DNA of 43,954 bases from a virus (IMGVR_UViG_3300046492_000329:1-43954), one strand, 5' to 3'. Counted from the first letter of the stretch, positions 22,252 to 43,954 are shown. The notes: generated from the sequence alone by a model not told the origin. Translations and numbers: made by a program.

Positions 22252-22279
22252 GTCTCAAAAACAGGGCAAATTGAGACGA
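22252..22279. repeat. Inverted repeat overlapping copy 1 of a 22-bp repeat
   Basis: GTCTCAA (22252-22258) pairs with TTGAGAC (22271-22277) across 12 bases. Bases 22258-22279 recur exactly at 24172-24193. It lies between the portal stop and the protease start. No T-run follows, so it is not an obvious terminator. Confidence 0.6.
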
Positions 22280-24171: not shown

Positions 24172-24193
24172 AAAACAGGGCAAATTGAGACGA
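24172..24193. repeat. Copy 2 of the 22-bp repeat
   Basis: This is identical over 22 bases to 22258-22279 (it contains ACAGGGCAAATTGAGACG). It ends 4 bases from the stop of the Mor-like gene and lies 47 bases upstream of the gpW-like start. This copy lacks the left arm of the inverted repeat seen at copy 1. Confidence 0.65.
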
Positions 24194-28612: not shown

Positions 28613-28840
28613 CAAACCCTGCAACGCTGAGAGCCGCATGAACACTAGCTCTCAGCAGGGTATGCATGGTTGCAGGGTCGTTTATATAGTCCCGGCAAAA
28701 AAATACAGACCCATCAGTCCAAATAAAAAATCGCGCCTACGTGCGCTACACCCGTCAAACCCTGCATACCCTGCTGAGAGCCACTATCCATGCGGGTTTC
28801 AGCGTTGCAGGGTTTGGCCGCAACCCTGCTCAACCCTGCA
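28613..28840. repeat. Large inverted repeat with eight ACCCTGC iterons (candidate origin)
   Basis: The arms at about 28613-28666 and 28763-28816 are inverted copies matching at 48 of 54 positions, around a 96-base centre with A-rich tracts (28699-28703 and 28725-28730 areas). ACCCTGC occurs eight times in both orientations: plus near 28616, 28759, 28768, 28823 and 28833; minus near 28655, 28672 and 28807. The region overlaps the last codons of the primase-helicase gene. Iterons plus an AT-rich segment beside a primase-helicase gene suggest a replication origin. A terminator or small mobile element is the alternative. Confidence 0.55.
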
Positions 28841-31562: not shown

Positions 31563-31788
31563 GGCGCACCTCCTGCTCCGCGCTCAGCATCGCCAACTGG
31601 ATCGTCAAGTGGGCCAGGACTGCGGCCTTTTCGCGCGGGGTATTGATGCGGTCGGTACCGCTCGAGCACGACTGCTGAGCTTGCCCAATGGTACCGTGTG
31701 GACGCGCCGCTAAAATTGTTTCAAGATTGGGAAGGCGCATGCCCGAACTTTGTAAAGAAAAATCTGCGGGGATGGTTTGGCAGTCCAT
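31549..31788 (-). CDS. Small early protein coupled to the CII-like gene
   Basis: The protein has 79 residues. Its ATG at 31788 overlaps the CII-like stop (TGATG), and its end overlaps the primase start by 14 bases, so it belongs to the leftward early operon. A second in-frame ATG at 31740 would give 63 residues. The C-terminal part is helical (TPREKAAVLAHLTIQLAMLSAEQEV). No family is recognised; the place suggests a role in replication or regulation. Confidence 0.7.
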   Translation of the reverse strand: MDCQTIPADFSLQSSGMRLPNLETILAARPHGTIGQAQQSCSSGTDRINTPREKAAVLAHLTIQLAMLSAEQEVRHGDA

Positions 31789-32234
31789 CAGCGCGGCTCG
31801 GCCATGCCTGCGACGCGCGCCGACAGCTGCTCCAGGGCGCACTCGGCCTCCTTCACTGCTTTCTGGACGCGCGCAAGCTCGGCCTGCGTGATGCGGCCAT
31901 CCGCCAGCGCGTCGTACATTTCCTTCCCCACGTCACCCTGGGTGCGCATGACCTTCACGACCAGCTCGAGCACGGCGACGTCCGATGCGTTTTCGACTTC
32001 ATCCATCTTGATGCAGACATAGCCGTGGTTGCGCGCCAGGGACTGCAGTATCCGGTGGTCGCCGGTCAGGCCCATCAGGCGGTCCGCCTCTTCCAGCGTC
32101 GGCTTGTTGGTGGCGATGTTCGGGTTGGCCTTGTTGCGCAGCACGCCGGGGTTCATCCCCAGGCGCAGGGCCACGACTTCGCAGCCGCCATCGGCGTCGT
32201 GCACGGTTGCATGGAACGCGTCAAGGATGTTCAT
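31788..32234 (-). CDS. CII-like phage regulatory protein (CP76 family)
   Basis: The protein has 148 residues with the CP76/CII pattern: FHATVHDADGGCEVVALRLGM, LRNKANPNIATNKPTLEEADRLM and TGDHRILQSLARNHGYV. The N-terminal helix-turn-helix is followed by a helical multimerisation tail. Members are described as regulators of the lysis-lysogeny decision. It follows cro in the leftward early operon, as cII follows cro in lambda. The upstream Shine-Dalgarno (AAGG) is weak and sits in an AAGGCCTT palindrome. Confidence 0.85.
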   Translation of the reverse strand: MNILDAFHATVHDADGGCEVVALRLGMNPGVLRNKANPNIATNKPTLEEADRLMGLTGDHRILQSLARNHGYVCIKMDEVENASDVAVLELVVKVMRTQGDVGKEMYDALADGRITQAELARVQKAVKEAECALEQLSARVAGMAEPR

Positions 32235-32347: not shown

Positions 32348-32650
32348 CTACGCGTGGCCACCACCCTGGTCCGGCTGGGGAGAGGCCGTATCGTCCTGGT
32401 CATCCTTGCGACGACGCGCCGCCGGACCCGCGCCGCGCAGCTCCGGCCAGATTCGTGGCCAGTCGTCCGGACGAAGGTCCTGACGCGTCACCTCACCGTC
32501 TGTCTCGCGCTCGATGTCGACACACCGCTCCGGCGAAATAGCCGAGGTGCCGCTGGCCAGCTGCGACAAGTAGGAGCGGGAAATCCCGAGCTTCTCCGCC
32601 AGCCGGGAGGCGCGGCCGCGGTCGGCCTGGATGAAGGATTTGAGGTTCAT
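32348..32650 (-). CDS. Cro/YdaS-like repressor
   Basis: The protein has 100 residues with the YdaS-type helix-turn-helix: MNLKSFIQADRGRASRLAEKLGISRSYLSQLASG, then ISPERCVDIERETDGEVTRQDLRPD. It is divergent from the CI-like gene across an operator-filled 108-base gap. The ATG at 32650 is only 6 bases beyond a -10 element, so the message is probably leaderless. By analogy with Cro it shuts down repressor synthesis and turns down early leftward transcription. The Arg/Asp/Pro-rich C-terminus is disordered. Confidence 0.88.
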   Translation of the reverse strand: MNLKSFIQADRGRASRLAEKLGISRSYLSQLASGTSAISPERCVDIERETDGEVTRQDLRPDDWPRIWPELRGAGPAARRRKDDQDDTASPQPDQGGGHA

Positions 32651-32656
32651 CGCGCC

Positions 32657-32698
32657 AGTTTAGTGTTTGCTAAACCTGACGTCAAGCAAACACTTATC
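32657..32698 (-). promoter_or_regulatory. Leftward early promoter (PR-like) with operators
   Basis: Minus-strand TTGACG (32685-32680), a 17-base spacer and TAAACT (32662-32657) make a strong sigma-70 promoter for cro. A perfect operator GTTTAG-N6-CTAAAC (32658-32675) covers the -10 and spacer. An imperfect GTCAAG-N6-CTTATC (32681-32698) covers the -35. The two are 23 bp apart, the same spacing as at the xis promoter. Confidence 0.85.
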
Positions 32699-32722
32699 AA
32701 GTAATTGCTAAACAGTTGTCGA

Positions 32723-32751
32723 GTGAACACTAGTTTAGAAAACGCTAAACT
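32723..32751 (+). promoter_or_regulatory. Repressor promoter (PRM-like) with operator
   Basis: GTGAAC (32723-32728), 17 bases and TAAACT (32746-32751) precede the cI ATG at 32759 by 7 bases, giving a leaderless transcript. A perfect operator GTTTAG-N6-CTAAAC (32733-32750) lies over the -10. The -35 is weak, as in lambda PRM, so activation or autorepression by the repressor is plausible. Confidence 0.7.
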
Positions 32752-32758
32752 TCGGCCC

Positions 32759-33154
32759 ATGAACATGGACATCAAAGAAACCAGGCGCGAGAACCTCAGG
32801 AAGTGGCTGGAAACACACAAGACCCCGCCAGCGGAGCGCAGTTACTTTTCGCAACTGCTATTGGGGACCAGCACGATGGGCGAACGAGCGGCACGACGCA
32901 TCGAGGCGGAGTACAACATGGGTGCGGGTTATCTGGACACGCCCCTAGAGAAAGTCGGCGCCGACCGCGAGGCCAAAGCGGGGCCGGAACCGGAACGTAT
33001 GGATCTGGTATGGGTGACGCCGCGGGAAATGCAGATCCTTACCGCCTTCCGGGCCTCGAGCGAGCGCGGCAAGGCCAGTATGGAAGTGTCGGCGGAAGTC
33101 AGCGAAAAAGAAAGGTCACCGCTTCGCAGTGTCGGAGGCAACCAGGCGCAATAA
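32759..33154 (+). CDS. CI-like repressor without a peptidase domain
   Basis: The protein has 131 residues from the ATG at 32759, which has no Shine-Dalgarno sequence. Residues 5-65 are an XRE-type helix-turn-helix domain (IKETRRENLRKWLETHKT, YFSQLLLGTSTMGERAARRIE, GAGYLDTPLEK). The C-terminal half has a short helical segment (VTPREMQILTAFRASSERGK) and a disordered tail, with no LexA/S24 Ala-Gly cleavage site or Ser-Lys dyad. It should maintain lysogeny by binding the GTTTAG-type operators. Induction by RecA-stimulated self-cleavage is not expected. Confidence 0.85.
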   Translation: MNMDIKETRRENLRKWLETHKTPPAERSYFSQLLLGTSTMGERAARRIEAEYNMGAGYLDTPLEKVGADREAKAGPEPERMDLVWVTPREMQILTAFRASSERGKASMEVSAEVSEKERSPLRSVGGNQAQ

Positions 33155-33277
33155 CGGTGCATGCGGTGTTTTACGCGGCCACTTCGCCGCGTACAACTTT
33201 GCCAGCTCAGCGAATTCTTTCTGCGCCTGGTCGTCCATTTCCTTATAAAAGGCGATCATTTTTGCTAACGTTTCCAT
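33116..33277 (-). CDS. Small protein convergent with and overlapping cI
   Basis: The frame has 53 residues from the ATG at 33277. It begins METLAKMIAFYKEMDDQAQK, continues FAELAKLYAAKWPRKTPHAP and ends AKR. The sequence is a plausible helical protein, unlike the surrounding shadow frames. The last 13 codons are antisense to the 3' end of cI. The Shine-Dalgarno is weak (GAAAG). Transcription toward cI could oppose repressor synthesis. It is short, so confidence is moderate. Confidence 0.45.
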   Translation of the reverse strand: METLAKMIAFYKEMDDQAQKEFAELAKLYAAKWPRKTPHAPLLRLVASDTAKR

Positions 33278-33327
33278 GACTTTCAGTACATCCGTTTTGT
33301 ATTGATGAGCTATGCAAACTGTATGAG

Positions 33328-33343
33328 GTAGGATGATTCCTAC
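33328..33343. promoter_or_regulatory. Palindrome upstream of the small antisense gene
   Basis: GTAGGA-TGAT-TCCTAC is a perfect 6-4-6 palindrome about 50 bases upstream of the ATG at 33277 and 180 bases before the Arc-like gene. It is a candidate operator. The rest of the 33278-33521 intergenic stretch holds only this site and the palindrome at 33462. Confidence 0.4.
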
Positions 33344-33461
33344 ATCCTTGGATTAGCGACTTAAATACCCTCTAATTCTCAAACGAACAATCACACATTC
33401 TCACCCTCCCCTATGACAATGCATGATCGGCCCTAATGCAGCGGAAACACCCGGTTACAAC

Positions 33462-33482
33462 GTGGCTTCAAATTGAAGCCAC
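33462..33482. promoter_or_regulatory. 21-bp palindrome upstream of the Arc-like gene
   Basis: GTGGCTTCAA and TTGAAGCCAC form 10-bp arms around a single central base, ending 39 bases before the Arc-like ATG. Ribbon-helix-helix proteins commonly repress their own gene through such sites, so this is a likely autoregulatory operator. No clear -35/-10 pair is seen beside it. Confidence 0.55.
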
Positions 33483-33521
33483 CAGCAACAATAAAACGGC
33501 AGTTCGCGCAAGAATCGCGCG

Positions 33522-33767
33522 ATGCCGGTAGAAAAGAAAAAGAAACCCACAACGACTGTTCGATTGCCACCCGACCTGCACGCCGAGGTCAAAGAGGCTG
33601 CAGCGCGCGCCGGGCATTCCATGAACGACGAGATCATTGAACGCCTGCGCAGCCTCTCGAATGCAAATCTGGGTGGACCGACGCTGCGCGACGTCGTGCG
33701 CCAGAATGAGAAGACACAATTGATGGTGCAGCAGATCATTGACGCCATCAGCCCAAAGCGCCGGTAA
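33522..33767 (+). CDS. Arc-like ribbon-helix-helix DNA-binding protein
   Basis: The protein has 81 residues. The core KKPTTTVRLPPDLHAEVKEAAARAGHSMNDEIIERLRS is a classic Arc/MetJ-type RHH fold: one beta strand then two helices. The C-terminal 35 residues are helical and may extend the dimer. Arc-like proteins in phages repress genes of the immunity region. It lies downstream of cI in the same direction and has a 21-bp palindrome just upstream. Confidence 0.88.
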   Translation: MPVEKKKKPTTTVRLPPDLHAEVKEAAARAGHSMNDEIIERLRSLSNANLGGPTLRDVVRQNEKTQLMVQQIIDAISPKRR

Positions 33768-33816
33768 GGCCGGCAAGGCGCCCCGGCACGCCGACCTGCC
33801 GCCAAAGTAGAAGACC

Positions 33817-34296
33817 ATGACGGTTCAATGCCCTGGCTGTAGTGCACACATCTCGATCGCCAGCGCGGTGTCCTGCCCGCGCTGCTCCACCGCCCTGCCG
33901 CGGCCTGGCGCGGCCGCCTTGACCACAAATCGTCACACGGGCACCGGCAATACGTTCGGGCTGGCCGCCCTGGTCTGCTGCGTACCGTTGTTGGGATACA
34001 TCATCTACCAGGTAGCCGCGCCATCGCCGGGCCAGCTGGAAGAGCGCCAGGTGCAGCAGGCGCTGGCGACGTGCCAGCGCGCGATCAGGACGCAGGCTCT
34101 GTACGATGGCGCGGACCGTCCGCCCTACGTTCCGAACCGCGGCGGCGCCGGCGAGTTCCAGTTCGTCTGGCCGTCCGGCAGCTTCCACTTCACCAACGCC
34201 TTCGGCGCGCGCCTGAAGATGTCCGCCAGCTGCAGCGGCGACCTGAGGACCGGCACCATCACCGGGCTCACCGTCAACGGCCAGACCATCCGCTAA
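33817..34296 (+). CDS. Zinc-ribbon membrane protein, possible superinfection-exclusion moron
   Basis: The protein has 159 residues. Residues 5-23 are a zinc ribbon (CPGC and CPRC). About 47-68 is one membrane helix (FGLAALVCCVPLLGYIIYQV). The C-terminal 90 residues form a beta-rich domain with two Cys (ATCQRAI and SASCSGDL), probably periplasmic. It is followed at once by an intrinsic terminator and lies in the lysogenically expressed region, where phages keep exclusion genes. That role is inferred from place and topology; no family is recognised. Confidence 0.75.
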   Translation: MTVQCPGCSAHISIASAVSCPRCSTALPRPGAAALTTNRHTGTGNTFGLAALVCCVPLLGYIIYQVAAPSPGQLEERQVQQALATCQRAIRTQALYDGADRPPYVPNRGGAGEFQFVWPSGSFHFTNAFGARLKMSASCSGDLRTGTITGLTVNGQTIR

Positions 34297-34315
34297 TTCC
34301 CCTCCCCGACAAACT

Positions 34316-34339
34316 GCCCGCCGCGTGCGGGCTTTTTTT
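34316..34339 (+). terminator. Intrinsic terminator ending the immunity region
   Basis: GCCCGC (34316-34321) pairs with GCGGGC (34327-34332) around CGCGT and is followed by seven T. It lies 20 bases after the stop of the membrane protein gene and just before the rightward early promoter, separating lysogenic from lytic transcription. Confidence 0.9.
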
Positions 34340-34349
34340 GCGCCTTCAT

Positions 34350-34391
34350 GTCAAGTAAATGCTTGACACTTGTTTAGTAATTACTTAATCT
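34350..34391 (+). promoter_or_regulatory. Rightward early promoter with operators
   Basis: TTGACA (34363-34368), 17 bases and TAATCT (34386-34391) form a near-consensus sigma-70 promoter. A perfect operator GTCAAG-N6-CTTGAC (34350-34367) overlaps the -35. A degenerate GTTTAG-N6-CTTAAT (34372-34389) overlaps the -10. The first gene starts 28 bases on, with GGGAG as its Shine-Dalgarno. This should be the main promoter of the 34419-42060 operon. Confidence 0.85.
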
Positions 34392-34418
34392 GCTCCTACC
34401 TCACTACGGGAGCACCCC

Positions 34419-34748
34419 ATGAGCACCTCCAACCAAGACCCGAAGCCTCTTTCACCTGGCGTCGCAGCGCTGGCCAGACTGCTGAACATCACACGCGGTC
34501 ATTCTGGCCAGTGCCGCATCGTCGCCGAGTTCCTGTTGAGCCTCTACAACGGGAACCGCTTCAAGTTCGACCTGACCGACTTCCGCTGCCTCGACCACAA
34601 AATCTTCGTCGACTGCCTGGAAGTGCTGAAGCTCGACTATTGCCCTGTGCAAGAGGTGCACCTCTACTTCAAGGGCGGCAGCCGCATCTGGGAACAGCTG
34701 GCCAAGGACTGGGGTATTCGCGACTACACGAAGCCGAAGGCAGCGTGA
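34419..34748 (+). CDS. DUF7673-like early phage protein
   Basis: The protein has 109 residues, first gene of the rightward early operon. The pattern ALARLLNITRGHSGQCRIVAEFLLSLYNG, then FKFDLTDFRCLD and a C-terminal IWEQLAKDWG fits a small family seen in Burkholderiales phages and plasmids that I recall as DUF7673. Members have no known function. It ends just before the next gene (TGACATGG). Confidence 0.8.
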   Translation: MSTSNQDPKPLSPGVAALARLLNITRGHSGQCRIVAEFLLSLYNGNRFKFDLTDFRCLDHKIFVDCLEVLKLDYCPVQEVHLYFKGGSRIWEQLAKDWGIRDYTKPKAA

Positions 34749-34749
34749 C

Positions 34750-34962
34750 ATGGCGACCGCTAAAGAGTTTCGGGCCAGGATCGTCGAGATCGCCCACGAG
34801 GTCATCCAGGCCGAGCCGACCAACGTCGACGCGCGCGCACGCAGCTTCATCGCGCGCCTCTCCGGCTCGATGGTGTTCCACGGCGAAAAGGCTGCGGAAA
34901 TCGCACTGCGGAAGGTGTTGGGCATGGACATACCGCCCAATGGCCCTGCCGACGGAGCCTGA
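34750..34962 (+). CDS. Small early protein, hypothetical
   Basis: The protein has 70 residues: ATAKEFRARIVEIAHEVIQAEP and FIARLSGSMVFHGEKAAEIALRKVLG. It looks mainly helical. It starts one base after the previous stop and ends one base before the next gene, so it is a tight operon member. No domain or function is recognised. Confidence 0.75.
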   Translation: MATAKEFRARIVEIAHEVIQAEPTNVDARARSFIARLSGSMVFHGEKAAEIALRKVLGMDIPPNGPADGA

Positions 34963-34963
34963 C

Positions 34964-35152
34964 ATGGACCGCATTTCGCCGGACCGCGCCGCGCTGGAGG
35001 TAGCCCACCGGATGCTCCGCGTCACCACGCCCATCGACGATCTGCTGAACAACGCCACCCTGCGAATCGTTTTGACGACCGTCGCCCGCCGGCACATGCA
35101 GCGCCGCAGCCGGCCGGACGTAAAGAAGCTGCAAGCCAACGACCACGATTAA
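34964..35152 (+). CDS. Small early protein, hypothetical
   Basis: The protein has 62 residues from the ATG at 34964: SPDRAALEVAHRMLRVTTPIDDLLNN, then VARRHMQRRSRPDVKKL. It is helical and basic at the C-terminus, consistent with nucleic acid binding, but no family is known. The longer upstream frame is a shadow of the two preceding genes. Confidence 0.7.
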   Translation: MDRISPDRAALEVAHRMLRVTTPIDDLLNNATLRIVLTTVARRHMQRRSRPDVKKLQANDHD

Positions 35153-35176
35153 CAACAACCAGGAGCCAACTCCAAT

Positions 35177-35521
35177 ATGACTACCCAAGCATTTGCCGTG
35201 CTTTTGCAGGACCTGCGCGACGGCCGCGCCCACTCCGAGCTGTCGGCTGGCATGGCCGACCTGCTCGCAGCGGTGAAAGACACGGGCAAGGGCGGCACCC
35301 TGACCCTCTCACTGAAGGTCAAGCCGGGCGCCCGCGGCAAGGACGTCGACAAGGTGATCATCACCGACAACGTCAAGGTCGACCTGCCCAAGCCCGAACG
35401 CGGCGAGGACTTCTTCTGGGTTACCGACAGCAATGAGCTCTCCCGCAAGCACCCCCGCCAGCAATCGCTCGAACTGCGCGAAGCGCCGGCACCTCAACCC
35501 ACCAAACTGAAGGAAGCGTAA
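35177..35521 (+). CDS. Conserved early protein paired with DUF2303
   Basis: The protein has 114 residues: a helical N-terminus (FAVLLQDLRDGRAHSELSAGMADL), then a beta-rich middle (GGTLTLSLKVKPGARG, KVIITDNVKVDLP) and a Pro-rich tail. Its stop overlaps the start of the DUF2303 gene by one base. This pairing is common in phages of Gram-negative bacteria. No function is established. Confidence 0.8.
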   Translation: MTTQAFAVLLQDLRDGRAHSELSAGMADLLAAVKDTGKGGTLTLSLKVKPGARGKDVDKVIITDNVKVDLPKPERGEDFFWVTDSNELSRKHPRQQSLELREAPAPQPTKLKEA

Positions 35522-36417
35522 TGAACGAAAGCCATAACACGGCCGCATCCGGCGCCATCGCCGGCCAGCTGGCCACCGCAGCTGCCCCAGCCCAAGAGCA
35601 CCTGGAGATCAGCAAATCCTCCATCGAACAGATCGGCGCCCTGACCGTGGCCGCGGCCAACATCCGCTCGGTCGCCGACGCGCACTTCCTGATCTTGCCG
35701 CCCGAATACAAGCACGTCGACGTCACCAAGGCGATCGAGCAGACGCTGACGGAGCCGCACCGCAAGAGCGGTCACGTCGCGCTGTCGGACCTGCCGAGCT
35801 TCCTCCAGTTCGTCGCCGACCAGGCGACGCCGGACAACTGCTACATCTACGCACACCCGGACACGCGCACCCTGGTCGCCGTGCTGAACGACCACGGCCA
35901 GGACCATGGCGGCCTGCCGGGCTGGCGCGATTTCCGCGTGAGCTACACCGCCGAGCTCAGCCGCGAGTTCGCGGGCTGGTACAAGAATGACCGGGAGGTG
36001 ATGGAGCAGGAACAGTTCGCCGTCTTCCTCGAGGACAACTTCGCCGATATCGCCGATCCGACTGGCGAAACCATGTTGCAGGTCGCGCTGACGCTGCAGG
36101 CCAAGACCGAGGTCGCGTTCAGCTCGCAGCGCCGCCTCGACAACGGCCAGGTGCAACTGACCTACACCGAGACCATTGACGCCCGGGCCGGCTCCGGCGA
36201 CATCATGATCCCGCGCGAATTCGCGCTGGGCCTGCGCCTGTTCAAGAACGGCGACGGCTACAAGGTGCGCGCGCGGCTGAAGTACCGCCTGAGCGCCGGC
36301 AAGGTCAAGTTCTGGTACGAGCTGGACCGCGTGGAGAACGCGATCGAGGATGCGTTCAAGGCCTACGTCGAGCAGGCGCGCCAGAGCGGCTTCACGGTCC
36401 TCATCGGCAAGCCTTAA
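35521..36417 (+). CDS. DUF2303 family protein (YfdQ-like)
   Basis: The protein has 298 residues. Characteristic segments are VADAHFLILPPEYKHVDVT, SDLPSFLQFVADQATPDNCYIYAHPDTRTLVAVLNDH, WRDFRVSYTAELSREFAGWY, MEQEQFAVFLEDNFADI and the C-terminal FKNGDGYKVRARLKYRL. The family is widespread in prophages and of unknown function. Its place in the early operon suggests a role before structural genes are made. Confidence 0.9.
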   Translation: MNESHNTAASGAIAGQLATAAAPAQEHLEISKSSIEQIGALTVAAANIRSVADAHFLILPPEYKHVDVTKAIEQTLTEPHRKSGHVALSDLPSFLQFVADQATPDNCYIYAHPDTRTLVAVLNDHGQDHGGLPGWRDFRVSYTAELSREFAGWYKNDREVMEQEQFAVFLEDNFADIADPTGETMLQVALTLQAKTEVAFSSQRRLDNGQVQLTYTETIDARAGSGDIMIPREFALGLRLFKNGDGYKVRARLKYRLSAGKVKFWYELDRVENAIEDAFKAYVEQARQSGFTVLIGKP

Positions 36418-36433
36418 GCCAGGAGCGCTCGCC

Positions 36434-36847
36434 ATGCCCCGTTTTCATCGCCGCCCGCAGTTCCAGGCCAAGGCCAAGGTCCCGATGACGACCGAGAGCC
36501 GCGACCGGCTTGCGATCGAGATCCGCATGGCCGGCGAGACCCTGATCGCGCAGCCCTCGATCGACGCCTATAACACCGTCTCGAAGATGTTCGCCATGCT
36601 GGTTCGCGCCGGCATGGCCGGTGAGATCGTCGACCCGGGCTCTCGCATCATGGGCGCGATCTGTGACCGGTACGAACAGGTCCGCACCATTACCGTGGAG
36701 CCCGAGGAGGCCGCAGCCCTGCGCCAAGTGATCGCGAACATCGACGGCGCGCTGCCGCGGATCCCGCTGAACCGCTTTGACCGCGCCGTGGCCGAGGTGG
36801 AAGCGTTCTTCGCGCTGACCAACATGAACCAATCTGACGAAAGCTAA
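36434..36847 (+). CDS. Conserved early protein, hypothetical
   Basis: The protein has 137 residues from the ATG at 36434, with AGGAG 8 bases upstream. The N-terminus is basic (MPRFHRRPQFQAKAK), and the rest is helical (RDRLAIEIRMAGETLIAQPSI, VSKMFAMLVRAGMAGEIVD). It resembles small helical proteins seen in early regions of related prophages. No function is assigned. Confidence 0.78.
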   Translation: MPRFHRRPQFQAKAKVPMTTESRDRLAIEIRMAGETLIAQPSIDAYNTVSKMFAMLVRAGMAGEIVDPGSRIMGAICDRYEQVRTITVEPEEAAALRQVIANIDGALPRIPLNRFDRAVAEVEAFFALTNMNQSDES

Positions 36848-36851
36848 CGAT

Positions 36852-37040
36852 ATGACGATGGGCTTCGCCAATCCGAGCACCACTGCTCTGTATCGCGCAC
36901 AAACCGCCGCCAGCATACCGCTCACCCTCCGCAGGAAGCACTGCGCGTGCGGCAAGGTGGTGACGGCCAAGCAGCTGCACCAGTACGGCGCCTGTGATCC
37001 GTGCGCCCGCGCTGCTGCGGCAGCGAAAAGGGCGGCCTGA
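36852..37040 (+). CDS. Small Cys-rich protein, possible zinc finger
   Basis: The protein has 62 residues. HCACGKVVTAKQLHQYGACDPCA holds a C-x-C ... C-x-x-C set typical of a treble-clef or zinc-ribbon fold. It lies directly before the methyltransferase gene (3 bases apart) and probably shares its transcript. The function is unknown. Confidence 0.7.
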   Translation: MTMGFANPSTTALYRAQTAASIPLTLRRKHCACGKVVTAKQLHQYGACDPCARAAAAAKRAA

Positions 37041-37043
37041 CCC

Positions 37044-38834
37044 ATGAAGCGCGACGACTTCACCCTCTCGCTGGGCTTCGGCCCCGAGCGCATCGCCGAC
37101 AACTTCGCCGGCGGCGGCGGTGCCAGCGAGGCGATCCGCCAGGCGTTCGGGCGCGACCCGGACATCGCCGTCAACCACTGCGGCGAGGCGCTGGCGATGC
37201 ACGCGGCGAACCATCCGACCACGCGCCACCTCCGCGAGGATGTGTTCCTGATCGATCCGCGGCGCGAGATCGGCGACGGCCCGTTGGGCGCGGCCTGGTT
37301 CTCGCCGACGTGCACGCACTTCTCGAAGGCCAAGGGCTTCAACATCCTCGACCAGAAGACGCGCGGCCTGGCCTGGGTCGCGCTGAAGTGGGGCGTGCAG
37401 CTGGCGCCGCGCATCATGTTCCTCGAGAACGTCGAGGAGTTCCTGACCTGGTGCCCGCTGGACAGCCACGGCCGCCCGATCAAGGCCCTGCGTGGCCGGA
37501 CCTTCCAAGCGTTCGTGCTGGCCCTGTCCACCGGACTGCCGAAGGACCACCCGGACCTGCCGGAGATCGTCGCAACGCTGGGCCAGGACTTCCCGATCGA
37601 GCGCATCATCGCCGGCCTGGGCTACAAGGTCGAGTGGCGCGTGCTGCGCGCGTGCGACTACGGCGCCGGGACCATCCGCAAGCGCCTGTTCATGGTGATG
37701 CGCCGCGACGGCCTGGCGATCCGCTGGCCGGAACCGACCCACGGCGACCCGAACTCGCCCGCAGTGAAGTCGGGCAAGCTGCTGCCGTTCGTCACCGCGG
37801 CGGACTGCATCGACTGGTCGATTCCGTGCCGCTCGATCTTCGATCGCAAGAAGCCTCTGGCGACGGCCACGCTGCGCCGGGTCGGCGTCGGCTTCGAGCG
37901 CTATACCCTAAAGGCGGCGCGGCCGTACATCGTCGACACGGCCCACGGTGAGGCATCGCCTGGCGGCGCCAAGCGGTGGGGCAGCGGCGTGCACTCGACC
38001 GATGCCCCGATGGGCACCATCACCGCCGGTGGCCAGAGCGCTGCGGTTGTCACTGCGTCCCTGGTTCAGTACTACAAGAGCGGCAGCCAGAACGTGGCGA
38101 TCGACAGGCCGGCACCGACCATCGTGACGAAGGACCGCGTGGGCGTCACCTGCGCCTACCTGGCCAAGCACTACACCGGCGTGGTCGGCGCCAGCGTCGA
38201 GCAGCCGATGCCGACCGTCACCACGCAGGACCACAACTCGGTGGTCACGGCGCACCTGGTTGGCATCGACAACAAGAGCAACGGCGTCCGCGACGTGTGG
38301 GACGTCGAGCGGCCTCTCAACACGATCGTGACCGAGAACCGCCATGCGGTCGTTACCAGCAACCTGGTCAAGCTGCGCGGCACCAGCACGGCCACCGCGG
38401 CCAACGAGCCGCTGGGCACAGTCAGCGCCGGCGGCCAACACCATGCCGAGATGCGCACCACGCTGGCCCACCCGGGCCAGTCCGCCGCGCGCCGCGAGCA
38501 GGTCCGCGCCTTCCTGCGCGAGTACTGCCCCAGCCTGAAGGACGCCGAGTTCCCGGAGCTGGTGGAGATCAACGGCGAGCTGATGGAAGTGGTCGACATC
38601 GGCCTGCGCATGCTGGTGCCGCGCGAGCTGGCCAACGCCCAGGGCTTCCCGCCAGGCTACATCCTGAATCCGTTCCACACGAAGACCGACAAGCGTGGCC
38701 GGACGGTCACGAAGCGCCTGTCCGGATCCGCCCAGGTCCGAATGATCGGCAACAGCGTTTCGCCACCACCAGCCGTCGCCGTAATCAGGGTCAACATCGC
38801 GCACGAGACCGAACTGGCCCGCCTCGCAGCCTGA
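37044..38834 (+). CDS. Phage DNA cytosine-C5 methyltransferase
   Basis: The protein has 596 residues. Motif I is NFAGGGGAS (20-28). The catalytic motif IV is SPTCTHFSKAKG with Cys90 (PTC instead of the usual PC). Motif VI is ENV (128-130), motif VIII TIRKRLF and motif X GNSVSPPPAVAV near the end. The enzyme transfers methyl from SAM to cytosine C5, presumably protecting phage DNA from restriction. No partner nuclease gene is nearby. Between VIII and X (about 310-480) there are five degenerate repeats of the form PxxTIxTxxxxxxVxxxLxK, in the place of the target recognition domain. Confidence 0.93.
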   Translation: MKRDDFTLSLGFGPERIADNFAGGGGASEAIRQAFGRDPDIAVNHCGEALAMHAANHPTTRHLREDVFLIDPRREIGDGPLGAAWFSPTCTHFSKAKGFNILDQKTRGLAWVALKWGVQLAPRIMFLENVEEFLTWCPLDSHGRPIKALRGRTFQAFVLALSTGLPKDHPDLPEIVATLGQDFPIERIIAGLGYKVEWRVLRACDYGAGTIRKRLFMVMRRDGLAIRWPEPTHGDPNSPAVKSGKLLPFVTAADCIDWSIPCRSIFDRKKPLATATLRRVGVGFERYTLKAARPYIVDTAHGEASPGGAKRWGSGVHSTDAPMGTITAGGQSAAVVTASLVQYYKSGSQNVAIDRPAPTIVTKDRVGVTCAYLAKHYTGVVGASVEQPMPTVTTQDHNSVVTAHLVGIDNKSNGVRDVWDVERPLNTIVTENRHAVVTSNLVKLRGTSTATAANEPLGTVSAGGQHHAEMRTTLAHPGQSAARREQVRAFLREYCPSLKDAEFPELVEINGELMEVVDIGLRMLVPRELANAQGFPPGYILNPFHTKTDKRGRTVTKRLSGSAQVRMIGNSVSPPPAVAVIRVNIAHETELARLAA

Positions 38835-38861
38835 CACACCCATCCACAACCAGGAGAGACC

Positions 38862-39566
38862 ATGAAAAAAATTCTCATGTACGTCCAGCAGCTGTTCGGC
38901 GCCCTGCGCCATCGCGTCACCGACCGCAGCCACCACCAGCCGGTCAACTACGCCAACATCAAGGCCCTGCTGCTGCACCTGTGCGACTTCGACGAGGACA
39001 AGTGCCTGTGGGTGATGCGCTGGCTGGCTTACCCGCTGCGCAACCCCGGCGCAAAGATGTCGCGCGCCCTGCTCGTCGCCGGCCCGGAAGGGACCGGGAA
39101 GCACATGTTCTTCGAGCGCATCGTGATGGAGCTATACGCCGACGGCGCGCACAAGTTCCGTCACCCGGTCGACACGACCACCATCTGGCCCACGGGCACG
39201 CGCCTGGCGATCCTCGACGGCGTGCTCTCGAAGGGGTACCAAGATCGCCTGAAGCACCTGGTCACCGCTACCGACCTCCCTCAGCGCAACAGGGGCGCCA
39301 CCACGGTCCGCCGGCCCAACAGGATGAACTTCATCATGATCTCCGGTATGCCGGGCGCCCTGCAGGTGGACCCAGACCAGCGCCGGTTCTGCGTGATCGA
39401 CGCCCCGGCGCCGATGCCGCCGGCGTTCTACCGCTCCGTCGAATACGAGATCCAGAGCGACGGCATCGAGGCCTTCCTCGACTTCCTGATGCGCGACCTC
39501 GACATGAGCGACTTCGACGCGCTGACGCCGCCTCCGATGAGCCGGGCGCCAGCGATGGCCGCGTGA
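38862..39566 (+). CDS. Stand-alone degenerate SF3 helicase-like domain
   Basis: The protein has 234 residues. Residues 28-180 align by eye with the ATPase domain of the prophage primase-helicase: RWLAYPLRNPGAKM matches RWLAYPLQHPGAKM, and RRFCVIDA matches RRFMVIEA. Key residues differ: Walker A GPEGTGKH ends in His81 instead of Ser, the Walker B acidic pair is DG (119-120), and the sensor Asn is replaced in ISGMP. It lacks TOPRIM and C-terminal domains. It may be a catalytically weak paralogue that forms mixed rings or binds DNA. AGGAGAG precedes the ATG. Confidence 0.82.
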   Translation: MKKILMYVQQLFGALRHRVTDRSHHQPVNYANIKALLLHLCDFDEDKCLWVMRWLAYPLRNPGAKMSRALLVAGPEGTGKHMFFERIVMELYADGAHKFRHPVDTTTIWPTGTRLAILDGVLSKGYQDRLKHLVTATDLPQRNRGATTVRRPNRMNFIMISGMPGALQVDPDQRRFCVIDAPAPMPPAFYRSVEYEIQSDGIEAFLDFLMRDLDMSDFDALTPPPMSRAPAMAA

Positions 39567-39583
39567 GGGACCGGAGACGCATC

Positions 39584-40102
39584 GTGAGCAGGCATCATCC
39601 CCAGCCGCGCGCCGCCGGCCGCCGCAAGAGCCGGCGCTGGCGCATCTTCTTCCGCGAGCGCCGCAGCGGTTTTGACCGGCGCTCCCGGGCTGTGGATCTG
39701 CCCAGCTCGAGCGCGCGCTACGTATACGCAACCCAACCCTTGCCGGCCGCGCCGGCACCCTACCTGGAGACCACGATGAAGAATATCTTCGCCCCTGCTG
39801 CCGAGATCGTGCTGGCCGCGCTGCTGCTCGCGGCGGCGGTCTACCTGGCCCTGCTCACGCCCGGCATCCGAATCGCGCCGTTCGACCTGCCGGGCGAGAT
39901 GTCCGTCCTCCAGTGGCCGCGCCAGATGCTCGCGTTGGCTTGCGGATTCTTCGGCTTGCGGTTCGCGTTCGGATCGTGGGGCGGCTATCCGGAGCTGCGG
40001 CCGGCGCTGGTCGGCGTGATCGTGCTGGTGCAGGCGCCGGTGTGGTGGACGGTCGGCGAGGAAGCGGCGAAAGCTATCGAGAAAGCATGGATGTGGCTAT
40101 GA
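39584..40102 (+). CDS. Membrane protein with a basic N-terminal motif
   Basis: The protein has 172 residues if GTG 39584 is used (GGAG 9 bases upstream); ATG 39776, also with GGAG, would give 108. The first part is Arg-rich with WRIFFRERRSGFDRR. I recall this kind of motif from other small proteobacterial proteins, which favours the longer form. Membrane helices lie at about 71-90, 112-128 and 139-152 of the long form. It may be an early membrane-acting or exclusion protein; the function is unknown. Confidence 0.6.
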   Translation: MSRHHPQPRAAGRRKSRRWRIFFRERRSGFDRRSRAVDLPSSSARYVYATQPLPAAPAPYLETTMKNIFAPAAEIVLAALLLAAAVYLALLTPGIRIAPFDLPGEMSVLQWPRQMLALACGFFGLRFAFGSWGGYPELRPALVGVIVLVQAPVWWTVGEEAAKAIEKAWMWL

Positions 40103-40350
40103 CCGGCCCAGTCCCCAATGCCCAGGACGAGCCGCTCGATCCTGAATCATTCAAACACCAGTACCGGCTACTGAAGTCCGCGCACTGCTGCAGGCCTGTG
40201 ATCTACCACGGGCTCAACCAGTTCATCCACAGCCTGACGCTGCACCAGGACGGCGGCCGGGTCGCGATGACGGTCTACCTGGCCGGCATCACCGGCGGGA
40301 TCGAAAGCAGCGAAGTTCAAATCAAGGGCACCACTTCAAATGAGGAATGA
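40099..40350 (+). CDS. Small early protein, hypothetical
   Basis: The protein has 83 residues from the ATG at 40099, which overlaps the previous stop (ATGA); an ATG at 40087 would add four residues. QYRLLKSAHCCRPVIYHGLN and RVAMTVYLAGITGGIESSE are the most ordered parts. No domain is recognised. It is a typical accessory gene of the rightward operon. Confidence 0.68.
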   Translation: MTGPVPNAQDEPLDPESFKHQYRLLKSAHCCRPVIYHGLNQFIHSLTLHQDGGRVAMTVYLAGITGGIESSEVQIKGTTSNEE

Positions 40351-40354
40351 CACC

Positions 40355-41035
40355 ATGAGCACTACCACCACAACTGTCGCGACCGAGGTACCGAAGTGTG
40401 CGGAATGCGACGGCCACGGCACATTGGGACTGCAGCTCCTGCCGTGCTTCGACTGCAAGGGGACCGGGCGCGCTACCCTTCCCCAGCAGCCGACCGACTT
40501 CGCCGCCTGGCTGGCCCGGGTCCCTGAGCTGGGTGGCTTCTCCATTGGCGCCAAGGGGTGGCTGGTGTGGAGCGCGGCCCAGCAAGCCGCTGCCCACCCT
40601 GCACCGACAGCGCAAGCCGCCCCGAGCGCGCCGGTCGGCAGCTACGTGCTGATGCCTACGGGTCTAACCGCCGAGAACGGCGCAAAGGCCGAGCTGTCGG
40701 GCGAGTTTTCTGAATCGCTGACGGTCAAGCGCCATGAGTGCGAGGGCGTGGGTGAAGTCGATGACGGCTACGAGTGCGCCGAATGCAAGGGCGAAGGAAC
40801 AGTTGAGCAGCCAGTAATGGTCGAGTGGGACACCATCAAGCGCATCTATGCTCGCGCCGTTGCGCTTCTCGGCGCCCCTACTAGCACAGACAGCGCCGCA
40901 CCGACCCGCGAAGCCGTGAGCGAAATGCTGCACCGCGCGCTGGACCGGGCTGGTATTCACGTCGCGCGCACGCTGGTCGACGAGTACTTCACAGACGAGT
41001 GGAACAAGGGCGCCAAGGAAGGTGGTGTAGCGTGA
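40355..41035 (+). CDS. DnaJ-like zinc-finger phage protein
   Basis: The protein has 226 residues. The N-terminus has paired CxxCxGxG-type motifs (CAECDGHG and CFDCKGTG), and a second set follows near 125-145 (CEGVGEV and CAECKGEG), like half of a DnaJ cysteine-rich domain. The C-terminus is helical (REAVSEMLHRALDRAGIHVARTLVDEYF). No J domain is present. It may bind unfolded protein or nucleic acid. Start 40355 is favoured over the in-frame ATG at 40340. Confidence 0.75.
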   Translation: MSTTTTTVATEVPKCAECDGHGTLGLQLLPCFDCKGTGRATLPQQPTDFAAWLARVPELGGFSIGAKGWLVWSAAQQAAAHPAPTAQAAPSAPVGSYVLMPTGLTAENGAKAELSGEFSESLTVKRHECEGVGEVDDGYECAECKGEGTVEQPVMVEWDTIKRIYARAVALLGAPTSTDSAAPTREAVSEMLHRALDRAGIHVARTLVDEYFTDEWNKGAKEGGVA

Positions 41036-41331
41036 TCCCGCAAATGACAGACCCGTTGGGCCGTCACTGGCGCCAGCCTGCCGACATCCGCGAAGCGCCG
41101 ATGGATGAGACCCATGTTCTGCTGACTCCGCGCCAGGTCGCCGGCTTGCCCGAGCACTCCAGCAGCTACCCATCCGGCACGTACGACGGCAAGTGCTGGA
41201 AGCGCGAAGGCGAGGACTGCTGGTATCTGTGCTGGTATCAGCCGCACCCGACGCCGGGAAAAATCGGCATCGGACACCGCATCATCCTGGAGGTCGAGGC
41301 ACCCCAAGCAGAGAAGGAGAGCGACAAGTGA
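41032..41331 (+). CDS. Conserved small phage protein
   Basis: The protein has 99 residues. The GTG start at 41032 overlaps the previous stop (GTGA). The text TDPLGRHWRQPADIREAPMDE, VLLTPRQVAGLPEHSSSYPSG and GKCWKREGEDCWYLCWY is a pattern I associate with small accessory proteins of Burkholderiales phages. It is Trp/Cys-rich. No function is known. Confidence 0.75.
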   Translation: MIPQMTDPLGRHWRQPADIREAPMDETHVLLTPRQVAGLPEHSSSYPSGTYDGKCWKREGEDCWYLCWYQPHPTPGKIGIGHRIILEVEAPQAEKESDK

Positions 41332-41852
41332 GCATCTTATCTAAACTTCTGGCGCGGCCTGCTGTCGCCGACTGGCTGATCCGACGGGCGCAGCGGACGC
41401 CCTACTTCCACCTGGTCGGCGCCGACGGCACGGTCTACATGGAGCGCTACTGGCTGTTCAATCCGTACCCGCCGAAGAACGATGGGGCCGGTCGCCGCTG
41501 GGGCGACTGGCTGCCGTCCGTACGCCTGCACAAGATCATGCGCGAAGACCTGGACCCGCACATGCACGACCACCCGTGGAACGCGCGCACGTTCATCCTG
41601 CGCGGGTGGTACGAGGAACTGCGCCGCGAGGTCATTGAAGGCGAACGGCTCGACCACGTCATCGATGTGCTGCGCGTGCGACGCCCAAGCGACACGGCGC
41701 GCCTGCGCTTCGGCGAGTACCACCGCATCACCGAGGTGTCGCCTGGGGGCGTGTGGACGTTGTTCATCACCTGGCGCAAGCGCGGCACGTGGGGGTTCCT
41801 GGTCAACGGCCGCAAGGTGCCGTGGCGCGAGTACCTGGGAGTCGACAATTGA
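41328..41852 (+). CDS. Cupin-like metal-binding phage protein
   Basis: The protein has 174 residues. The GTG start at 41328 (AAGGAGA upstream) overlaps the previous stop. The central motif DPHMHDHPWNARTFILRGWYEE carries the H-x-H-x-W set of a small cupin metal site, followed by GEYHRITEVSPGGVWTLFITW with a third His. Such proteins occur in phage accessory regions with unknown substrates. The 157 bases after it (41853-42009) hold no gene I can support. Confidence 0.72.
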   Translation: MSILSKLLARPAVADWLIRRAQRTPYFHLVGADGTVYMERYWLFNPYPPKNDGAGRRWGDWLPSVRLHKIMREDLDPHMHDHPWNARTFILRGWYEELRREVIEGERLDHVIDVLRVRRPSDTARLRFGEYHRITEVSPGGVWTLFITWRKRGTWGFLVNGRKVPWREYLGVDN

Positions 41853-42009
41853 GCCCCCTGGCCTCCGCGCAGATCCTGCTGCGCCCTGAGATGCTGCCCA
41901 ACCCGGCAATGCTCCTGCACTTTTGGCTGACGCCCTGGTGGTGGCTGCTGCCGCCGGCCTCCGATCGCCGCGAACCGTCGGGCCGCGGCGACGCGCGATC
42001 CCGACGCGC

Positions 42010-42051
42010 GTCAAGTATTCACTTGACGATATGTTTAGTGGATACTAAACT
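42010..42051 (+). promoter_or_regulatory. Excisionase promoter with both operator types
   Basis: TTGACG (42023-42028), 17 bases and TAAACT (42046-42051) form the promoter. Perfect GTCAAG-N6-CTTGAC (42010-42027) covers the -35 and perfect GTTTAG-N6-CTAAAC (42033-42050) covers the -10. This is the cleanest copy of the paired operator arrangement and puts xis under the same repressor as the lytic operons. Confidence 0.87.
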
Positions 42052-42084: not shown

Positions 42085-42324
42085 ATGACCAAGCTGTTTC
42101 TAGACCTGAAAGAAGTTGCTGACACGACCACGCTGGGCGAAGCGACCGTCCAGCGCCTGGTGCGCGAGCACGCCTTCCCGCAGCCGCGGCAGATTTCCGG
42201 AAAACGGGTCGGCTGGCTGTTCAGGGAGGTGCAGGAGTGGTGCGAGACCCGCCCAGTGTCGAACCAGTTGCCGCCTCCGAACACATCGCGCCGCGCCCCG
42301 AAGCAGCCGGCCACCGGCCTATGA
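42085..42324 (+). CDS. xis: AlpA-like excisionase/regulator
   Basis: The protein has 79 residues with a MerR-like helix-turn-helix of the AlpA family: LFLDLKEVADTTTLGEATVQRLVREHAFPQPRQISGKRVGWLFREVQEWCETR. AlpA-like proteins act as excisionases or activate integrase genes of P4-type elements. It is convergent with the integrase gene, overlapping it by 6 bases at their 3' ends. Its promoter carries the repressor operators, so excision should start only on induction. Confidence 0.88.
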   Translation: MTKLFLDLKEVADTTTLGEATVQRLVREHAFPQPRQISGKRVGWLFREVQEWCETRPVSNQLPPPNTSRRAPKQPATGL

Positions 42325-43605
42325 GGACCGCACCAGGTTCTCGTAGTGCTCGCTGAGCTTGCCCAGCCATTCCCGCCGCTCCTTGTCGTAGCGGTGCAAG
42401 TTGTAGACCCCCGCTATGCCCTTCGGCATGTGCCCCAGCACTGCCTCCGCAACTTCCTCACCACACCCCAGCGCCGCCAGCTGCGTACGCCCCGTTCGCC
42501 GCAGGTCGTGTGGCGCCCAGTGCGTCACCGGCAAGCGCGGCCGGACCATGTGTGGCCTGGTCTTGGCATACGGCTGGTGGAACCAGACTGCGACCCCGAC
42601 CGTCTTCTGCTCGACGTACCCGACCTTCCCCGGGGAGGGGAAGATGTAGCCCTGGCCGAACTGCTCACGCCGGCACAGCACCACCTCGCGTGCGCGGCCG
42701 ATCAGCGGCACCCGCAGGTCGGTGGCCTCTTCGAAGCGCGCGTTCTTGGTCTTGCTCTTCGGGATCACCCACCACAGGCCATCTGCTTCTTCGAATATCT
42801 CCGAGCCCTTCATTGCCATGATCTCGCTGCCGCGCGTGCACGTCCACAGGTACAGGGTCAGCGCATCCTTAATGGTGCGCGAGAAGTTCGGCAGCCAGCG
42901 GATAAGCTGGCCGATCTCGTCCGGCGTCAGCACGCGCTTGGCGGTGCCGATCGCGATGCCATCGCGGATATGTCCTTTGCTGCGCAGCTTGCCCCTCATG
43001 ATCTGGCGCCACCAGTTCGGGACGTCGGCGTCCAGCTTGCCTGAATCATGTCCATGGTCCCAGACAGCACCGAGCTCCCTCTTCAGCTTGGCCGCCTGGA
43101 CGGGGATATGGGCAAACGACTGGATGAGATCGTACGCCTGCACCCGGGTTACCTCGTGCGGCTCCAGCTCGGCGAACTCGCCCAACATGGTCGAAAACAT
43201 CCGCCGCACCTCCGCCGCTCCCTTTGGCGCACGGTTGCGGTCGACGTGGTCCCGCAGGTAGAGGTCACACAGGGAGCCGACGGTAAAGCGGTTCGCCGCC
43301 CGGGCGCGCGCCTGCTCCCTGGCCTCGCGCGCCTGCGTGCGTTCCGCGCGCTTCTCGTCGGCGGGATCACGGCCGTCCGCGCGCTGGGCGCGCAGCTGCT
43401 CCCACTCGACCGTGGCGGCCGCCAAGGACTTCTCCGGCCACTCGCCGATCTTCACCTGGCGCATCTTGCCGGTGGCCGGGCTCTTGTACCGGTAGATCCA
43501 CGACTTTGACGTCGTCGATGCCTCCAATCGAAGCCCGGGGCACTCGGAAATGATAAAGTGTCGCCCTGGCTCCAGTTGCTTTGCAGCTCTCGCATCAAAT
43601 TGCAT
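42319..43605 (-). CDS. int: P4-type tyrosine integrase
   Basis: The protein has 428 residues from the ATG at 43605. The frame runs to 43767 but the extra 54 residues are low quality and overlap arm sites. Residues 1-75 are the DUF4102-like N-terminal arm-binding domain, about 105-200 the core-binding domain, and 225-420 the catalytic domain with Arg258 (CTRGSE), His366-x-x-Arg369 (HDLRRTG), His392 (LGHMP) and Tyr401 (VYNLH). It recombines attP with the mutS site. Unlike most P4-type integrases it uses a protein-coding gene rather than a tRNA gene. Confidence 0.95.
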   Translation of the reverse strand: MQFDARAAKQLEPGRHFIISECPGLRLEASTTSKSWIYRYKSPATGKMRQVKIGEWPEKSLAAATVEWEQLRAQRADGRDPADEKRAERTQAREAREQARARAANRFTVGSLCDLYLRDHVDRNRAPKGAAEVRRMFSTMLGEFAELEPHEVTRVQAYDLIQSFAHIPVQAAKLKRELGAVWDHGHDSGKLDADVPNWWRQIMRGKLRSKGHIRDGIAIGTAKRVLTPDEIGQLIRWLPNFSRTIKDALTLYLWTCTRGSEIMAMKGSEIFEEADGLWWVIPKSKTKNARFEEATDLRVPLIGRAREVVLCRREQFGQGYIFPSPGKVGYVEQKTVGVAVWFHQPYAKTRPHMVRPRLPVTHWAPHDLRRTGRTQLAALGCGEEVAEAVLGHMPKGIAGVYNLHRYDKERREWLGKLSEHYENLVRSS

Positions 43606-43783: not shown

Positions 43784-43954
43784 ATGAATCAAGGCGTTAG
43801 GCAAAATATGCCGTTAGATCAAGAGCTTACAGGAAGCGAAAAAAGCAAGCATACCCCGATGATGCAACAATATTTGCGCATCAAAGGGGAGTACCCGACG
43901 ATGCTCGTTTTCTACCGGATGGGCGACTTCTACGAGCTGTTCTTCGAGGACGCC
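43784..43954 (+). CDS. mutS: mutS with phage-supplied 5' end (partial, runs off window)
   Basis: 57 codons are visible. The ATG at 43784 opens [20 protein letters not shown] from phage DNA, then joins in frame to [19 protein letters not shown] and the MutS domain I motif [11 protein letters not shown]. Phe49-Tyr50-Glu51 is the conserved mismatch-wedging F-x-E. MutS recognises mispairs and starts methyl-directed repair. A second in-frame ATG (43808), with TAGG upstream, would give a 19-residue leader before the core junction. The phage-derived leader is AT-rich compared with the host codons. Confidence 0.93.
43847..43866 (+). other. attR (right attachment site)
   Basis: AAGCATACCCCGATGATGCA matches attL at 18 of 20 bases; 43856-43866 is the identical 11-bp core. 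The bases to its left are phage DNA and code for the new MutS N-terminus; those to its right are host mutS. The frame is continuous across the site. Confidence 0.9.

What the first reader, a model, noticed from the sequence alone, without database searches (positions are those of the whole stretch)
32657..42051. Two-motif operator regulon linking cro, cI, early and xis promoters
GTTTAG-N6-CTAAAC lies on the -10 region at 32658, 32733 and 42033 (weak at 34372). GTCAAG-N6-CTTGAC lies on the -35 at 34350 and 42010 (weak at 32681). The pairs are spaced 22-23 bp, about two helical turns. Motif quality differs by promoter, so two proteins (CI-like and Cro-like) or one protein with two modes could set the order in which the promoters open. 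It places the excisionase 9 kb away in the same circuit.
Basis: seen in the sequence. Interest (0 to 1): 0.65.

Follow-up and report, generated by a model that had tools for sequence, protein, structure and literature searches.

The report
Prophage repressor operators extended to excisionase
This prophage uses one repeated repressor-binding sequence, of a type already known from an E. coli prophage, at its main switch and its early-gene promoter, and an extra copy pair at the excisionase promoter 9 kb away probably shuts and opens the gene for cutting itself out of the chromosome together with the rest.

Summary
The sites are real and far beyond chance. They are not two motifs. They are one 18-bp operator, GTYWAG-N6-CTWRAC. 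The CTTGAC half carries the -35 (TTGAC), the CTAAAC half carries the -10 (TAAACT), and the 22-23 bp spacing is promoter geometry. A matrix built only from relatives, excluding the window and its nearest relative, ranks the window's nine sites first to ninth of about 43,900 positions, all at the claimed promoters. Of 50 non-redundant relatives of the CI-like protein, 43 carry the operator upstream of that gene (0.2 expected), and 41 of 51 carry a pair at an early promoter. This is the PaaR2/YdaS immunity type of E. coli prophage CP-933P, where both proteins were footprinted on 18-bp GTTTAGTAA palindromes and repress PL (PMC8630535). The extra pair on the excisionase promoter is the less usual part: only this phage and its closest relative have it. 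There the promoter is 36/42 identical while flanks are poorly conserved. Best reading: the CI-like protein, probably shared with the Cro-like one, holds PR, PL and Pxis shut together, so excisionase is released at induction while int has its own promoter. The proposed two-protein ordering is unsupported. Binding was not tested.

The parts
32759..33154 (+). CI-like repressor, 131 aa; PaaR2-type N-terminal DNA-binding domain, no peptidase domain found
   Evidence: phmmer to PDB 7nkv/8c3k 'Phage repressor protein CI' E=1e-13; phrog_5736 transcriptional regulator; no Pfam or NCBIfam hit, so no S24 peptidase
32348..32650 (-). Cro-like repressor of the YdaS family, 100 aa
   Evidence: Pfam YdaS_toxin 4e-16, HTH_3; PDB 8c7k/8co2 'antirepressor protein Cro' 5e-19
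31788..32234 (-). CII-like regulator (Phage_CP76)
   Evidence: Pfam PF06892 2.5e-41; phrog_101 CII-like activator
32658..32675 (.). Operator site, exact; carries the -10 of PR (cro)
   Evidence: score 28.4
32681..32698 (.). Operator site, 1 mismatch to joint consensus; carries the -35 of PR
   Evidence: 19.5
32696..32713 (.).
   Evidence: 24.9; aligns with the relatives' -63 site
32718..32735 (.).
   Evidence: 11.9, ninth best position in the window; aligns with the relatives' -40 site
32733..32750 (.). Operator site, exact; carries the probable -10 of PRM (cI), 8 nt before the ATG (probably leaderless)
   Evidence: 26.5; leaderless reading inferred from geometry and from paaR2 (PMC8630535)
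32657..32685 (-). PR promoter of cro: TTGACG-17-TAAACT
34350..34367 (.). Operator site, exact; carries the -35 of PL (early operon)
   Evidence: 21.1
34372..34389 (.). Operator site over the -10 of PL; best-scoring site under the family matrix
   Evidence: 30.1
34363..34391 (+). PL promoter TTGACA-17-TAATCT, read by eye
   Evidence: sequence; same layout in 41 of 51 non-redundant relatives
34419..34748 (+). First gene of the early operon (DUF7673)
   Evidence: E=5e-30
42010..42027 (.). Operator site, exact; carries the -35 of Pxis
   Evidence: 21.9; conserved in G001
42033..42050 (.). Operator site, exact; carries the -10 of Pxis
   Evidence: 27.9; conserved in G001
42023..42051 (+). Pxis promoter TTGACG-17-TAAACT
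42085..42324 (+). Probable excisionase (AlpA family), convergent with int and overlapping its 3' end by 6 bp
   Evidence: Pfam PF05930 1.8e-11; phrog_2790 and phrog_66 excisionase; 52% identical to the G001 homologue
42319..43605 (-). Tyrosine integrase with a separate promoter-like site (43691-43664) that bears no operator

Best explanation
A single operator class (18 bp, GTYWAG-N6-CTWRAC) defines the immunity regulon of a PaaR2/YdaS-type lambdoid prophage. A CI-like dimer (32759-33154) binds pairs of sites that cover the -35 and -10 of PR (cro, CII, replication), PL (early operon) and Pxis, and a site over its own promoter PRM. The Cro-like YdaS protein probably uses the same sites. In the lysogen all three lytic promoters are shut together. 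When the repressor is lost, xis is switched on from its own promoter along with PR and PL, while int, transcribed convergently from its own promoter without an operator, is already available. Excision is thus tied directly to loss of immunity. Shown here: the sites, promoter-like sequences, gene identities by homology, conservation across relatives, and the xis operator in two phages. Inferred: which protein binds, repression, and the effect on excision.
For: Nine window sites are the top nine positions under a matrix trained on other phages. There are 5 exact sites against 0.003 expected and 3 close pairs against none in 300 shuffles. 43 of 50 non-redundant CI relatives have a site with at most 1 mismatch upstream of CI (0.2 expected), and 41 of 51 have the PL pair. 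The operator goes with the CI DNA-binding domain: relatives with that domain but different C-terminal halves keep it, while YdaS relatives with unlike CI N-termini (L023, L031-L036) lack it. The CP-933P homologue PaaR2 was footprinted on the same 18-bp palindromes and, with YdaS, represses PL about 100-fold (PMC8630535). Phage Evi's regulator matches the solved domain that begins MQKKE, the start reported for PaaR2, and Evi carries the same operators. The G001 xis promoter keeps the pair, 36/42 identical within poorly conserved flanks.
Against: No binding data exist for this phage. The xis pair occurs in only two phages; four other xis homologues lack it, though none of those four records has a convincing PaaR2-type CI and two are fragments. 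xis may also be read from PL by transcription through the early operon. Excisionase identity rests on AlpA-family homology and position beside int. In CP-933P the paper notes the exact binding sequences of the two proteins remain to be determined.
Confidence: 0.82

Rival explanations
1. Two proteins read two motifs: GTTTAG sites are for one repressor and GTCAAG sites for the other, and the mix at each promoter sets the order of opening.
For: The window has fully symmetric GTCAAG-N6-CTTGAC sites at 34350 and 42010, which relatives rarely have. CI-like and Cro-like proteins do rank sites differently in CP-933P: YdaS binds PRM first (PMC8630535).
Against: Hybrid sites are the rule in relatives, and CTTGAC sits where the -35 falls. 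One matrix captures all sites. Pair scores are nearly equal at the three promoters. In CP-933P the footprints of both proteins overlap.
Confidence: 0.07
2. The xis-proximal pair is mainly an architectural anchor: an octameric CI bound at OR, OL and Oxis loops 8-9 kb of prophage DNA, and control of xis itself is secondary because xis is read from PL.
For: PaaR2 and RacR octamerise in solution (PMC8630535, PMC11014345), and lambda CI loops OL to OR. In E. coli Rac, lowering RacR raises xisR and intR about 100-fold although they lie far from racR (PMC11014345).
Against: The pair sits exactly on a sigma-70 promoter directed at xis, in the same layout as PR and PL. Upstream sequence differs in G001 while the pair and xis persist, which fits promoter control.
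Confidence: 0.08
3. Chance or promoter-like similarity only: AT-rich promoters in a GC-rich phage look alike.
For: The -35 and -10 hexamers are part of the motif.
Against: Palindromic outer halves are not needed for a promoter, yet shuffles never reach the observed pairs. The matrix from other phages picks only these promoters. Conservation spans dozens of divergent phages.
Confidence: 0.01

Closest known systems
PaaR2/YdaS/YdaT immunity region of cryptic prophage CP-933P, E. coli O157:H7 (PMC8630535)
   Same: Homologous CI-like DNA-binding domain and YdaS-family Cro; 18-bp palindromes with half-site GTTTAGTAA over PRM, PR and PL; no peptidase in the repressor; cI start placed for leaderless translation.
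   Different: The window has five sites in OR (CP-933P: four palindromes), a CP76-type CII instead of YdaT, no paaA2-parE2 found beside cI, and an operator pair at xis. The text of that paper does not mention xis or int.
RacR/YdaS of the E. coli Rac prophage (PMC5700373, PMC11014345)
   Same: Short CI-like repressor, YdaS Cro, lambdoid layout; loss of RacR raises xisR and intR about 100-fold.
   Different: The RacR operator is a GCCTAA/TTAGGC repeat. No window-type operator stands out in the Rac stretch read (best score 14.6, not at racR/ydaS).
Lambda OR/OL with CI and Cro (own knowledge)
   Same: Divergent cI/cro, shared operators for both proteins, PR, PRM and PL, tight early repression.
   Different: Unrelated operator sequence, CI without a cleavable S24 domain, five OR sites; in lambda xis lies under PL and not under a separate CI operator.
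Repressor-controlled excisionases: Pf4r/xisF4 (PMC7379572) and SaPIbov1 Stl/xis (PMC4936726)
   Same: The master repressor directly represses the excisionase gene.
   Different: In Pf4 xis is divergent from and adjacent to the repressor gene; here it lies 9 kb away with its own copy of the operator pair.

Membership tests
PaaR2/YdaS-type immunity (CP-933P) | CI-like protein with PaaR2-type DNA-binding domain | tested here: met
   phmmer E=1e-13 to 7nkv/8c3k; Evi's regulator matches the same PDB chain
PaaR2/YdaS-type immunity (CP-933P) | YdaS-family Cro, divergent | tested here: met
   PF15943 4e-16; PDB 8c7k 5e-19
PaaR2/YdaS-type immunity (CP-933P) | 18-bp palindromes GTTTAGTAA-type at PR, PRM and PL | tested here: met
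PaaR2/YdaS-type immunity (CP-933P) | Repressor without S24 peptidase | tested here: met
   no Pfam or NCBIfam domain
PaaR2/YdaS-type immunity (CP-933P) | CII role filled by YdaT | tested here: not met
   CII-like gene is Phage_CP76; a variable slot, not treated as defining for repressor and operator
PaaR2/YdaS-type immunity (CP-933P) | Both proteins bind the operators | not testable with these tools
   needs EMSA or footprinting
RacR-type immunity | GCCTAA/TTAGGC operators | tested here: not met
   window sites are GTYWAG-N6-CTWRAC; the Rac stretch lacks strong sites of this type
Lambda CI family (S24 repressor) | Autocleavable C-terminal domain | tested here: not met
   no S24 match
AlpA-type excisionase | AlpA profile match and position beside int | tested here: met
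   PF05930 1.8e-11; 3' end overlaps int; same arrangement in G001
AlpA-type excisionase | Promotes excision | not testable with these tools
   needs an excision assay
Mycobacteriophage stoperator systems | Asymmetric repressor sites scattered across the genome | tested here: not met
   sites are palindromic and the nine best in the window are confined to the four promoters

The most novel reading that the evidence does not exclude
A third, distant operator pair recruits the same octameric repressor, so that OR, OL and Oxis form one looped complex; loss of repressor opens replication, early genes and excision as one cooperative event, and the lineage acquired this by placing the operator pair on xis (and by extending OR from three sites to five).
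Probability: 0.12. Interest if true: 0.55.

Novelty: new variant of a known kind. Interest (0 to 1): 0.36.

Why it matters
It shows that a lambdoid-type immunity repressor can plausibly take direct control of excision through a separate operator pair near int, instead of leaving xis at the end of the early operon. It gives a simple explanation of the two apparent motifs (operator halves overlaid on -35 and -10). It extends the experimentally characterised PaaR2/YdaS operator to dozens of phages, which allows immunity groups and operators to be predicted from sequence.

Tried and rejected
Two separate motifs or proteins: rejected on hybrid sites, half-site tables and one matrix. Graded promoter order from motif quality: pair scores nearly equal. 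RacR membership: operator differs. General xis regulation in the family: rejected; among about 70 records searched for the pair, only G001 has a third one, on xis, and four xis homologues lack it. A direct xis scan with the single protein found nothing; an alignment query worked. The genome-contig scan for the strict paired promoter hit only two genomes, none at xis. A search for direct repeats gave no clear att pair. A literature search for repressor operators at a distant xis promoter found no exact precedent in the held library, which does not prove there is none. Structure prediction was not run because a solved homologue of the DNA-binding domain exists.

Full report
OBSERVATION. Under the joint consensus GTYWAG-N6-CTWRAC the window has five exact sites (dinucleotide-shuffle mean 0.003) and three pairs 22-23 bp apart with at most two mismatches in total (none in 300 shuffles). 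Two sites were missed: 32696-32713, whose left half is of one 'motif' and right half of the other, and the weaker 32718-32735. The cI/cro region therefore holds five sites with centres 23, 15, 22 and 15 bp apart.

ONE OPERATOR, NOT TWO. Read on the transcribed strand, PR (minus strand), PL and Pxis have the same build: an upstream site ending in CTTGAC that supplies the -35 (TTGAC), then a 17-bp spacer, and a downstream site whose right half supplies the -10 (TAAACT at PR and Pxis, TAATCT at PL). Independent promoter scans find PR and Pxis. In non-redundant relatives the CTTGAC half lies where the -35 falls (42 of 43 PR pairs; 31 of 41 PL pairs, 8 more being CTTTAC), and the outer half of that site is GTTTAG in 30 of 41 PL pairs. 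The difference between the 'motifs' is therefore the promoter showing through the operator. The symmetric GTCAAG-N6-CTTGAC form in the window is a minor variant. The 22-23 bp spacing follows from the same geometry.

WHO BINDS. The rightward gene 32759-33154 encodes a 131-residue protein whose N-terminal 60 residues match the solved 'Phage repressor protein CI' 7nkv/8c3k at E=1e-13. That PDB chain begins MQKKE, the start reported for PaaR2 of CP-933P, and matches the regulator of phage Evi; I infer that it is PaaR2. The leftward gene 32348-32650 is a YdaS-family Cro, followed by a CP76-type CII. Jurenas et al. 2021 (PMC8630535) footprinted both PaaR2 and YdaS on 18-bp palindromes with half-site GTTTAGTAA over PRM and PR and showed about 100-fold repression of a PL with like operators. 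The window operator is of this type. A position matrix built from 208 sites of other phages, with the window and G001 left out, puts the nine window sites in ranks one to nine of about 43,900 positions (scores 30.1 to 11.9; next 8.8), and picks the Evi OR and OL as well; the E. coli Rac stretch gives nothing strong, in keeping with RacR's different GCCTAA/TTAGGC sites (PMC5700373).

CONSERVATION AND COVARIATION. Eighty viral contigs with the same CI DNA-binding domain were read. In 51 clusters at 85% identity, 43 of the 50 with enough upstream sequence have a site with at most one mismatch upstream of CI (0.2 expected) and 41 of 51 have the PL pair 0.5-3 kb beyond. The C-terminal halves vary, some with longer peptidase-like C-termini and others short as here, and the operator stays (C-termini judged by eye). 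YdaS relatives whose CI N-terminus differs (L023, L031-L036) have no such operator. This points to the CI DNA-binding domain as the reader of the motif, with Cro sharing it. Most relatives have three OR sites at about -63, -40 and -25 from CI; the window and G001 have those plus two more that carry the present PR.

THE XIS LINK. In G001 (IMGVR_UViG_3300046500_000147) the promoter of the homologous xis (52% identical protein) carries GTTAAG-N6-CTTGAC-N5-ATTTAG-N6-CTAAAC. The 42-bp promoter is 36/42 identical by my count, within poorly conserved flanks. xis and int converge with overlapping or nearly touching ends in both phages. Among about 70 records searched no other third pair was found, and four other xis homologues (L073, L074, L075, L077) have none upstream; none of those four records has a convincing PaaR2-type CI, although two are fragments. 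The xis operator is thus a local addition in a lineage with this repressor, conserved across substantial divergence.

MECHANISM. Most likely the CI-like protein holds PR, PL and Pxis shut in the lysogen and manages its own PRM, whose -10 lies 8 nt before the ATG, as in the leaderless paaR2. Loss of repressor opens all three; int has its own promoter-like site (43691-43664) without an operator, so xis would be the switch for excision. Sites, promoter-like sequences, conservation and gene identities by homology are shown here. Binding, repression and excision are inferred from the homologous system. In Rac, lowering RacR raises xisR and intR about 100-fold (PMC11014345), which is a functional parallel though not a demonstration of an operator at xis. 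The proposed order of opening is not supported: summed pair scores are PR 47.9, PL 51.2 and Pxis 49.8.

NOVELTY. The operator and switch are a new member of the PaaR2/YdaS type. The paired operator on a separate xis promoter 9 kb away, with five OR sites, is a modest new variant. Repressor control of xis as such is known (Pf4r/xisF4 PMC7379572; Stl/xis PMC4936726). I found no exact precedent in the held library, which is incomplete.

Noticed in passing
window 38862-39566: A 234-aa stand-alone helicase-like domain (DUF5906/VapE-like) in the early operon resembles, by eye, the C-terminal part of the phage's own 910-aa primase-helicase (28830-31562): a possible partial paralogue.
   Followed up: no
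L070 and L071 (Advenella mandrilli NZ_JAENGP010000011.1): The same paired operator promoter precedes a DUF7673-like gene (resembling the window's first early gene) with a ParA-like gene, and a small YdaS-like gene with a Rep-like gene: the operator module may also run a plasmid-like element.
   Followed up: partly
window 32658-32735 compared with L078-L157: OR seems to have grown from three to five sites in the window and G001: the old PR position (relatives' -63/-40) has decayed and a new PR lies 38 bp further out.
   Followed up: partly
window 22258-22279 and 24172-24193: Exact 22-nt direct repeat AAAACAGGGCAAATTGAGACGA between late genes, origin unknown.
   Followed up: no
window 43784-43954: Start of a mutS-like gene just beyond int (judged by eye), so the prophage probably sits upstream of host mutS; att sites were not resolved.
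   Followed up: no
L087, L124, L136: Three loci encode the CI DNA-binding domain but lack the operator upstream of it; L124 and L136 appear to lie directly after another gene rather than in a divergent cI/cro region.
   Followed up: partly
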